64,000 bases of DNA. Source: Mangrovivirga cuniculi (GTDB taxonomy: Bacteria > Bacteroidota > Bacteroidia > Cytophagales > Cyclobacteriaceae). The stretch spans positions 1,986,001 through 2,050,000 of the forward strand of contig NZ_CP028923.1 of NCBI RefSeq assembly GCF_005166025.1, in the 5' to 3' direction. Position numbers and translations under genes: made by a program. How positions within the stretch are numbered: the first letter of the stretch is position 1; each line of letters begins with the position of its first letter. A model generated the notes under the pieces. That model did not search any database. It worked only from the letters and a program-made list of their open reading frames with translations, and was not told where the DNA came from. Shown here one piece after another: positions 59,343 to 61,217 of this stretch.

Positions 59343-60344
59343 TTACCATCTGATCAAAGCGGATGCCCAGGTAAAGCCACTGCCAAATGCAGCAAGGCAT
59401 ACCAGATCATTTTCTTTTATTTTACCTTCTTGTTTAGCTTCACTTAATGCAATCGGAATAGAAGCTGCGGTAGTATTACCATATTTTTGAATATTACTAA
59501 TAACTTTCTCCTCTGGAAGCTTCATCGTATCCTGCACGAACTTCGTGATTCTCAAATTAGCCTGATGAGGTATAAGTACATCAACATCCTGTGGAGAGTA
59601 TCCGTTATGTTTTAATGCTTCTCCTATTACCTCAGGGAAACGTTGTACTGCATGTTTAAATACATAGTTCCCGTTCATGATCGGATAAATCAATCCTCCC
59701 GGCTTCATCATCTCTTCTGTAAGTCTTTCATGTCCGGAACTACTAGGAGCCACCACGCATAGCTCTTTTGCAAATTTACCTTCGGAATGTAAATGAGTGG
59801 AAAGAATTCCCTTTTCATTATTTTCTGACGGGCTTAATACCACAGCACCAGCACCATCACCAAAAATAACAGAAACGCTTCGACCCTCATTGCTGAAATC
59901 TAATCCACTACTATGAATTTCAGAACCAATAACCAGGACATTATTATACATACCTGTTTTGATGAAATTATCACCCACGGACAATGCATAAATGAAACCT
60001 GAACATTGGTTTCTGACATCAAGAGCACCGATTGTATCTATTCCTAATTCTTCCTGAACAGTAACTCCGGGTCCCGGAAAAAAATAGTCAGGAGATAAAG
60101 TGGCAAATACTATGAAATCTATATCTGAAGGTTGTAGTCCGGCATCATCTAAAGCCATTCTCGCCGCTTTAACACCCATGTTTGCTGTAGTATCTTTTTC
60201 AGGGTTATAATATCGGCGTTCTCTGATTCCGGTCCTTTCTCTGATCCATTCATCAGAAGTGTCCATTAGTTTTGCAAGATCATCATTGGTAACTACTTTT
60301 TCAGGGACGTAGTGACCAACTCCTGCTATCCTTGAGTTTTTCAT
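59343..60344 (-). CDS. fabH: 3-oxoacyl-ACP synthase III (FabH)
   Basis: A 333-residue condensing enzyme that starts fatty acid synthesis from acetyl-CoA and malonyl-ACP. The catalytic triad is Cys114 (NQCSGFIYAL), His (LIPHQANLRI) and Asn (YGNTTAASIP). GDGAGAVVL and TGIRERRYYNP are present. Length is normal. Bacteroidota commonly have several FabH-like proteins, some for branched or specialised lipids, so the starter unit is uncertain. It is upstream of the small acidic gene on the same strand. Confidence 0.94.
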   Translation of the reverse strand: MKNSRIAGVGHYVPEKVVTNDDLAKLMDTSDEWIRERTGIRERRYYNPEKDTTANMGVKAARMALDDAGLQPSDIDFIVFATLSPDYFFPGPGVTVQEELGIDTIGALDVRNQCSGFIYALSVGDNFIKTGMYNNVLVIGSEIHSSGLDFSNEGRSVSVIFGDGAGAVVLSPSENNEKGILSTHLHSEGKFAKELCVVAPSSSGHERLTEEMMKPGGLIYPIMNGNYVFKHAVQRFPEVIGEALKHNGYSPQDVDVLIPHQANLRITKFVQDTMKLPEEKVISNIQKYGNTTAASIPIALSEAKQEGKIKENDLVCLAAFGSGFTWASALIRW

Positions 60345-60459: not shown

Positions 60460-61158
60460 TTATTGAAAAAGGGTATAATTTCCATTCTGATCAACCGGTG
60501 GTGCAGGTTCAATGAGGGCAGGACCATCACTATTTGGTGAATTGATCAGAGGTGTAATAGAATAAAAAGACAGGAGTTCTTCCTCAGGGGCCTTTAGTAA
60601 ATCAATTAATTCTTCAGTAGCAGAGTCAGGGTTAAGCCAGATTTTTTCTTGTTCTTTGTTAAATATTACAGGCATTGAATTGCTGATCTCTGAAATATCA
60701 TCGTTTGAATTAGTTGTGATTATTCTGAAAGTATGGACCATTTCTCCATTATCAGCTTCATATTCATCCCAAATTCCGGCAAAAGAAAATGGCTCATTAT
60801 CGTATCTTATAACTCGATAGGGAATCTGGCTTTTTTTACCTAATTTCTTCCATTCGTAGTATCCATCTGCAGGGATAATGCATCTTCTGTCAGATAAAGC
60901 TTTTTTAAAACTGAACTTTTCAGTCAGGTCCTTATCTGAAGCAGCGTATAACTTAGGACTAACTGATTTGTTTTTAGCCATATCGGGAGTAATTCCCCAA
61001 TAAAACCAACTGATACCTTTCTCTTTTCCCGAAGTTATGACTGGCATGAGTTTAGTCGGTGCTACATTATATGCAGCTAATAAGTCTTTTTTAAATTCTA
61101 CATCAAACCTAACTTCAAGTTTTTCTTTTTCTGATATCAGTGAATATCTACCGCTCAT
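60460..61158 (-). CDS. SRAP (HMCES/YedK)-family protein with degenerate active site
   Basis: A 232-residue protein with the fold marks of the SRAP family: GRYSL start, YNVAPTKLMPVI, WGITPDMAKN, RRCIIPADGYYEWKK and FSFAGIWDEY. In active members Cys2, exposed by Met removal, crosslinks to abasic sites in single-stranded DNA. Here residue 2 is Ser (MSGRYS). The usual Asn of NARAE is Tyr71 (LYAASD), and the His of the IHxRMP motif is Ser159 (ISNSMP). Only the Glu of DGYYEW (E102) is kept. It is the same length as active relatives and has no frameshift, so the change looks inherited. A good promoter lies just upstream. Confidence 0.85.
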   Translation of the reverse strand: MSGRYSLISEKEKLEVRFDVEFKKDLLAAYNVAPTKLMPVITSGKEKGISWFYWGITPDMAKNKSVSPKLYAASDKDLTEKFSFKKALSDRRCIIPADGYYEWKKLGKKSQIPYRVIRYDNEPFSFAGIWDEYEADNGEMVHTFRIITTNSNDDISEISNSMPVIFNKEQEKIWLNPDSATEELIDLLKAPEEELLSFYSITPLINSPNSDGPALIEPAPPVDQNGNYTLFQ

Positions 61159-61180: not shown

Positions 61181-61210
61181 CAAAACTATTAATTTAACAT
61201 CCAAAATCAA
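61181..61210 (-). promoter_or_regulatory. Bacteroidota-type promoter for the SRAP-family gene
   Basis: On the minus strand TAGTTTTG (61181-61188) matches TAnnTTTG, and TTG (61208-61210) lies 19 bp upstream. It gives a leader of about 20 bases. The -33 element ends 7 bases before the ATG of the divergent peptidase-barrel gene. Confidence 0.55.
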
Positions 61211-61217
61211 ATCCGAA

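What the first reader, a model, noticed from the sequence alone, without database searches (positions are those of the whole stretch)
60460..61158. SRAP-family protein without its catalytic Cys2, Asn and His
SRAP proteins (HMCES, YedK) form a stable link to abasic DNA through Cys2, helped by conserved Asn, Glu and His. This protein keeps the fold motifs and Glu102 but has Ser2, Tyr71 and Ser159 at the other three positions, as well as Ser161 for the Arg of IHxRMP. It is uninterrupted and has a good promoter, so it appears maintained. It may bind abasic or single-stranded DNA without crosslinking, or have a new role, making it a candidate pseudoenzyme branch.
Basis: partly seen in the sequence, partly recalled or inferred. 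Interest (0 to 1): 0.6.

Follow-up and report, generated by a model that had tools for sequence, protein, structure and literature searches.

The report
Dead SRAP repair protein, conserved tail
In many Cytophagales bacteria a protein of the family that normally glues itself to damaged DNA has lost residues of its gluing chemistry several times over, yet the gene, its fold and a short tail that looks like a hook for the DNA-replication clamp are kept almost unchanged, which suggests a second, non-chemical job for this repair family.

Summary
Confirmed and extended. The 232-aa ORF at 60460-61158 (-) is a full-length SRAP protein (Pfam 182.6 bits) with Ser2, Glu102, Ser159 and Ser161. One correction: the catalytic Asn aligns with Ala72, not Tyr71. 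It is no oddity of one genome. A SRAP lineage of Cytophagales carries a C-terminal tail DQxGN[YLF]xLF. Of 112 such proteins examined, 47 keep the Cys/Asn/Glu/His set, 65 lack at least one of the four, and 54 lack Cys2; 13 more from two other families are all degenerate. Most degenerate and intact members lie at the same syntenic locus, so residues were lost in place, probably repeatedly. The tail (Q, G, L and F in 112/112; N in 111/112) and fold residues stay fixed while active-site columns relax; dN/dS of the window gene is about 0.03. In 15/15 genomes tested the degenerate copy is the only SRAP; in 7/7 genomes of another family a tailless intact copy coexists with a tailed degenerate one. 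The tail resembles the beta-clamp-binding motif with Asn for Gln (NYTLF), and 20/93 other SRAPs end in [QN]xx[LIM]F. Best explanation: a clamp-tethered SRAP pseudoenzyme acting without covalent crosslinking. Clamp and DNA binding are inferred, not shown.

The parts
60460..61158 (-). SRAP pseudoenzyme CDS, 232 aa
   Evidence: 96% and 84% identical orthologues in M. halotolerans and M. pacificum
61153..61155 (-). Ser2 codon (catalytic Cys2 in canonical SRAPs)
60943..60945 (-).
60937..60939 (-). Ser74 codon, aligned with the Arg/Lys of the NAR/NAK motif
60853..60855 (-). Glu102 codon (YedK Glu105), retained here but not in 55 of 65 degenerate tail relatives (window gene counted among the 65)
60682..60684 (-). 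Ser159 codon (catalytic His, YedK His160)
60676..60678 (-). Ser161 codon (Arg of IHxRMP)
60466..60492 (-). C-terminal tail DQNGNYTLF (residues 223-231)
   Evidence: Q224, G226, L230, F231 in 112/112 tail SRAPs, N227 111/112, D223 109/112
60466..60480 (-). candidate beta-clamp-binding motif NYTLF (residues 227-231)
   Evidence: inferred
61181..61211 (-). conserved promoter-like element TTTG-N19-TAGTTTTG
   Evidence: element type recalled
59343..60344 (-). FabH (3-oxoacyl-ACP synthase III), downstream syntenic neighbour, same strand
   Evidence: same-strand downstream FabH in 41 of 70 tail-SRAP loci with flanks; Pfam

Best explanation
The gene encodes a SRAP protein without its crosslinking nucleophile that keeps the SRAP fold and is held at the replication machinery by a C-terminal beta-clamp-binding motif (N-Y-T-L-F). 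It should not be able to make the Cys2 thiazolidine crosslink. It probably works non-covalently at the clamp, by occupying it or by contacting single-stranded or abasic template or a translesion polymerase, as a placeholder or regulator. Shown by computation: SRAP family membership and predicted fold; loss of Cys2, Asn and His; strong purifying selection; synteny with intact members; a near-invariant tail; loss of catalytic residues across many relatives. Inferred: clamp binding, DNA binding and the regulatory role.
For: Columns conserved in intact and tailless SRAPs but relaxed in degenerate ones are C2, G3, I71, A73, F84, E102, H159 and R161, seven of the eight within active-site motifs, while N31, P34, W54, G55, C93, F144, P163, W174 and tail Q224, G226, L230, F231 are fixed in all 65 degenerate members. 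Tail clade SH-aLRT 99, tail arises once. Gene order shared by both states: of 70 loci with flanks, 55 have the upstream hydrolase, 41 FabH, 43 PDH-E2, each always in one orientation, 64 at least one of the three. Sole SRAP in 15/15 genomes tested. In 7/7 genomes of family f5 the tailless copy is intact and the tailed copy lacks Asn, Glu and His. dN/dS 0.028. The tail resembles published clamp motifs, in which Gln to Asn has a modest effect, position 3 is free and Leu-Phe ends the motif. Tailless SRAPs end in [QN]xx[LIM]F in 20/93 against 0/653 background ORFs. A Y-family polymerase of this genome carries QISLF. Model pLDDT is 90.6 overall, but 71 over residues 221-230 and 51 over 231-232, compatible with a free peptide motif.
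Against: No co-complex was modelled and no binding measured. The motif has Asn rather than Gln at position 1 and Tyr at position 2, where an aliphatic residue is usual. Q224 and G226, outside the pentapeptide, are as invariant as the motif, so the ligand may be longer or different. Asn72 is kept in 44 of 65 degenerate members and is not among the relaxed columns. 11 of the 65, and 4 of the 7 tailed f5 copies, keep Cys2 and may keep slow crosslinking: YedK E105A still reached 50% in 1 h and E105D was only modestly impaired. Net charge of the window protein (residues 1-217) is -7, the degenerate mean -1.6, the intact mean +0.8, which does not favour DNA binding. The conserved neighbours are metabolic genes. 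In this genome only the SRAP ends in GN[YF][ST]LF among frames over 60 aa.
Confidence: 0.5

Rival explanations
1. Natural C2S-like enzyme: the window protein still opens abasic sites or forms a transient Schiff base through its N-terminal Ser amine with Glu102, acting as an AP lyase or reversible binder.
For: Glu102 is kept, and Ser at position 2 should allow Met1 removal (recalled rule). YedK C2A and C2S form borohydride-trapped adducts, and without the Cys2 thiol SRAP gives lyase-type cleavage products (PMC9436759, passages).
Against: His159 is lost (H160A and H160Q cost YedK about 10-fold or more), and so is Asn72. 55 of 65 degenerate members lack Glu102, and 30 of 65 have a bulky residue 2 expected, by the recalled rule, to keep Met1, so this chemistry is not what the whole branch conserves.
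Confidence: 0.2
2. Folded pseudoenzyme whose tail binds another partner (a repair or non-DNA protein, or the SRAP domain itself), not the clamp.
For: Conservation reaches beyond the pentapeptide (D223, Q224, G226); N63-K64 and K108-K109, commoner in the tail clade than in tailless SRAPs, are kept in 88-95% of degenerate members; the model gives the tail intermediate confidence, with bridges at residues 222 and 228; hydrolase-SRAP-FabH gene order recurs.
Against: The substitution pattern resembles the clamp motif, and other SRAP lineages end in QxxLF-like sequences.
Confidence: 0.25
3. Relaxed, decaying gene with no function after a canonical paralogue took over.
For: Active-site columns drift; this genome has a canonical SRAP elsewhere.
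Against: dN/dS 0.028; tail and fold residues fixed in the 65 degenerate members, which make up 48 wholly degenerate genera and part of one mixed genus; sole SRAP in 15/15 genomes tested; conserved upstream block.
Confidence: 0.04

Closest known systems
E. coli YedK (SRAP; PDB 6nua, 8d2m)
   Same: Fold (6nua: Foldseek E 6.2e-17, TMq 0.77) and motif framework
Human HMCES SRAP domain (5ko9, 6oov)
   Same: Fold. Recalled: HMCES has a C-terminal PCNA-binding motif, a possible parallel of the tail
   Different: HMCES crosslinks (abstract of PMC9436759); the passages do not describe a PIP motif in HMCES, so that parallel rests on recall
Bacteroides thetaiotaomicron BT_1218 (2f20)
   Same: Best match among solved structures by sequence and by fold
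   Different: Shows LNARAD, EW and HRMP where the window protein has YAASDK, EW and NSMP; its N-terminus and C-terminus were not compared
SRAP-like proteins linked to UmuC-like polymerases (PMC12926913)
   Same: Named there as putative PolY-binding regulatory subunits (passages and section 21)
   Different: The passages seen do not mention loss of catalytic residues or this tail; identity with this branch was not tested

Membership tests
SRAP (PF02586) | Full-length profile match above the gathering score | tested here: met
   182.6 bits against 27.1, profile 1-214/214
SRAP (PF02586) | SRAP fold | tested here: met
   AlphaFold2 model pLDDT 90.6; 21 PDB matches with E<=0.001, led by 2f20, HMCES and YedK
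Catalytically competent SRAP (YedK/HMCES type) | Cys2 after Met removal | tested here: not met
   Ser2 in three species
Catalytically competent SRAP (YedK/HMCES type) | Catalytic Asn | tested here: not met
   Ala72; Ser in the two nearest species
Catalytically competent SRAP (YedK/HMCES type) | Catalytic Glu | tested here: met
   Glu102
Catalytically competent SRAP (YedK/HMCES type) | Catalytic His | tested here: not met
   Ser159
Catalytically competent SRAP (YedK/HMCES type) | Crosslink to abasic single-stranded DNA | not testable with these tools
   needs purified protein
Beta-clamp-binding protein | Motif Q-phi-x-[L/M]-[F/L], Gln to Asn with modest effect (PMC11139829, passages) | tested here: inconclusive
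   N-Y-T-L-F at residues 227-231: positions 4 and 5 fit, position 1 is Asn, position 2 Tyr
Beta-clamp-binding protein | Physical interaction with DnaN | not testable with these tools
   no complex modelling or binding assay

The most novel reading that the evidence does not exclude
Clamp-tethered scaffolding, not abasic-site crosslinking, is the core conserved function of this SRAP lineage: the enzyme activity is an optional layer lost repeatedly, and dead SRAPs act as translesion-synthesis regulators at the clamp, as the inactive polymerase ImuB does in its mutasome. In family f5 the two functions are split between a tailless active copy and a tailed degenerate one.
Probability: 0.35. Interest if true: 0.8.

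Novelty: new variant of a known kind. Interest (0 to 1): 0.62.

Why it matters
As far as I know, SRAP proteins are studied mainly for their covalent abasic-site shield. A lineage in which catalytic residues were discarded, apparently several times, while the gene, mostly its locus, its fold and a clamp-motif-like tail stayed fixed is a natural separation-of-function experiment: it suggests a non-covalent function for the family and names the peptide through which to look for it. Related species with intact and degenerate versions at the same locus, in one case within a genus (g97), make the question directly testable.

Tried and rejected
Single-clade tests: holding all 65 degenerate rows together costs 76.9 lnL (AU p 0.055), holding all 47 intact tail rows together 62.7 lnL (p 0.087); neither is rejected at 0.05. 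The case for repeated loss therefore rests on parsimony on a quick tree with many open forks (at least 9 changes between states; 14 losses if regain is forbidden), on the mixed genus g97 and on mosaics: of 65 degenerate rows 11 keep Cys2, 44 Asn72, 10 Glu102 and 7 His159, and 3 lost only Cys2, so no residue is missing from all of them.

A search for the tail peptide elsewhere in the genome gave 14 DNA hits against 7 in the control; besides the SRAP only two very short frames (10 and 56 aa) end in it. A search for QLxLF plus stop was noise (231 against 220 in the control); only the first 30 of those loci were read for ORFs of 150 aa or more ending in the motif, and none was found. dN/dS to M. 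pacificum was not computable. Terminator-like sites: none found.

Paper searches (open-licence PMC library only): SRAP+HMCES+YedK+Bacteroidetes (0 papers); SRAP domain+inactive+catalytic cysteine+abasic (1 paper, PMC3765255, seen as passages); SRAP+YedK+phylogen+HMCES; SRAP, pseudoenzyme, abasic, any two (18 papers, 17 listed); HMCES, PIP box, PCNA, SRAP, any three; YedK+sliding clamp (a MutL paper by its listing); SRAP+Cytophagales; SRAP, catalytically inactive, SOS response-associated peptidase, any two (13 papers, 12 listed). In these listings (titles and abstract starts) I saw no report of inactive SRAP proteins. This does not show absence from print.

Considered and rejected: alternative start and sequencing error (observation check); dependence on a canonical SRAP in the same cell.

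Full report
What was checked. The ORF at 60460-61158 (-) starts with ATG, is 232 aa long and uninterrupted, and matches Pfam SRAP over the whole profile (182.6 bits). Its closest named relatives in the one scan of named genomes are Mangrovivirga halotolerans (96%) and Marinigracilibium pacificum (84%); the former is a Cytophagales bacterium. The window lies in a 4.66-Mb single-contig genome with two SRAP matches. The second, L002, has the canonical residues: MCGRY, FNIRSE, GFYEW, HHRMP.

Residues. The Asn is misplaced by one: LYAASDK aligns with LINARxE, so Ala72 stands for Asn and Tyr71 for Ile. In YedK, Glu105 is the most important residue after Cys2, His160 comes next, and N75A costs little; without the Cys2 thiol no crosslink forms (PMC9436759, passages). 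The window protein should thus be unable to form the thiazolidine crosslink, mainly through the loss of Cys2.

A family with a tail. Alignment with relatives showed a C-terminal tail DQxGN[YLF]xLF absent from the (recalled) YedK sequence and from the tailless relatives. I searched 295 genomes of the same family (the tool's f1) with a 21-row model (A1): 288 match. The list of places is capped and sorted by score, and its 30 loci favour intact members; one search covered 30 of the weaker or unlisted genomes, and fetched 40 further stretches, mostly one per genus. Of 208 loci aligned, 3 duplicates (L001, L033, L034) were dropped; 112 count as tail-bearing, two of them (L146, L149) assigned by eye because the pattern missed them, and 93 as tailless. 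The set is not random, and the tailless rows were found by similarity to this query or model.

Counts. 'Degenerate' means at least one of C2, N72, E102, H159 changed. Of 112 tail SRAPs 47 keep all four; 4 lost one, 12 two, 36 three and 13 all four; Cys2 is kept in 58 and lost in 54. By genus: 48 only degenerate, 25 only intact, 1 mixed (74 genera sampled). In 112/112: N31, P34, W54, G55, C93, P163, Q224, G226, L230, F231. Among the 93 tailless rows, E102 is Glu in 93, N72 Asn in 92 (1 Thr), C2 Cys in 78 with 15 unaligned, H159 His in 89 with 2 unaligned, 1 Lys, 1 Gln. Relaxation specific to the degenerate set falls on eight columns: C2, G3, I71, A73, F84, E102, H159, R161 (the tailless comparison there used 55 of the 93 rows). 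Asn72 is not among them: 44 of 65 keep it.

In place, probably repeated. In 70 tail loci with flanks (39 degenerate, 31 intact), an alpha/beta hydrolase lies upstream on the same strand in 55 (26 degenerate), FabH downstream on the same strand in 41 (15 degenerate) and a PDH-E2 gene upstream on the opposite strand in 43 (15 degenerate); orientation never varies, and 64 of 70 have at least one of them; 6 have none (4 degenerate, 2 intact) (Pfam identities from one example each). The window gene itself has only the FabH neighbour; its other neighbour recurs in its own genus alone (3 of 70). Most intact and degenerate versions are therefore orthologues at one locus. The quick tree (142 rows: 112 tail and 30 tailless; catalytic and tail columns removed) puts all tail rows in one clade (SH-aLRT 99) and needs at least 9 changes between intact and degenerate, 14 losses if regain is forbidden. 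AU tests do not formally reject a single clade of either state (p 0.055 and 0.087); mosaics and the mixed genus are the stronger argument.

Beyond the family. In the order search 62 of 108 genomes match. Tail copies fetched from two further families are all degenerate: 7 from f5 and 6 from f8, besides L029 from f8, already among the 112. All 7 f5 genomes in that sample also hold a tailless copy with all four residues; of their 7 tailed copies all lack Asn, Glu and His, while 4 keep Cys2. In the class search (62 of 119 genomes match) the only listed matches reaching the tail were three of the window's own family. L238 and L259, without this tail, are further degenerate SRAPs.

Not a passenger. 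dN/dS to M. halotolerans is 0.028 (NG86) or 0.022 (YN00). In 15 genomes chosen because they had a single A1 match, which is degenerate, Pfam SRAP finds exactly one copy in 15 of 15; 13 of these assemblies are at least 90% complete. A canonical partner is thus not needed. A TTTG-N19-TAGTTTTG element stands in a 50-bp block identical in three species.

What the tail is. Known beta-clamp motifs are Q-phi-x-[L/M]-[F/L] (phi aliphatic); Gln to Asn had only modest effects, position 3 is variable, and some motifs are C-terminal (PMC11139829, passages). In tail SRAPs position 1 is Asn in 111/112, position 2 Tyr 89, Leu 20, Phe 3, position 3 Thr 93, Ser 17, other 2, and positions 4-5 Leu-Phe in 112/112. 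Tailless SRAPs end in [QN]xx[LIM]F in 20 of 93, against 0 of 653 other open frames of 200 codons or more from fetched loci; relatedness is not corrected for and some frames may not be genes. A Y-family polymerase of the window genome carries QISLF and a second one ends LQLTIDF. The tail is the least confident part of an otherwise confident model. I take clamp binding as more likely than not, unproven.

Mechanism. Shown: a SRAP protein without the crosslinking nucleophile, under purifying selection, with a near-invariant tail. Inferred: the tail docks on the clamp, and the fold acts non-covalently there. Published genomics names SRAP-like proteins as putative PolY-binding regulatory subunits (PMC12926913, passages and section 21), and the mutasome protein ImuB is described as an apparently inactive polymerase (PMC3765255, passages); both fit such a role. 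The acidic charge of the window protein warns against assuming tight DNA binding, and degenerate relatives that keep Cys2 may keep some activity.

Verdict.

Noticed in passing
L312:2253-2985 (-), L319:634-1353 (+), L333 minus-strand 238-aa ORF: A second lineage of degenerate SRAP-like proteins (MI[ED]IYTIASKPQHI..., Pfam SRAP 55 bits for L319): three strong matches (G459, G416, G469) among 17 of 149 class genomes with any match. It sits directly beside a canonical MCGRY SRAP in L312 and L319. Beside it in L312 lies an ORF with Pfam HHH_6, and in L333 a 486-aa ORF; both look like DnaE C-termini to me (recalled, no DnaE model run).
   Followed up: partly
L238 and L259 (order-level loci): Degenerate SRAPs without the DQxGN tail (MASRY...LNDRMP, ending YSLFD; IQRY...LTKRMP, ending ELTLF), probably further independent losses.
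   Followed up: no
L231, L234-L237, L242: Tailless SRAPs of other families of the order end in PGETFSLF, PGESFSLFD, PGQSLPLFQ or PGESLSLFE, again like clamp motifs; L242 has Pro2 but otherwise intact motifs.
   Followed up: no
flanks of 70 tail loci (within L003-L162): Recurrent gene order alpha/beta hydrolase - SRAP - FabH, often with divergent PDH-E2; any functional link to lipid metabolism is unexplained.
   Followed up: partly
L302 (G000:C1 near 3414214-3414537): A Y-family polymerase of the window genome holds HGNYQISLFDD, whose GNY and SLFD resemble the SRAP tail.
   Followed up: no
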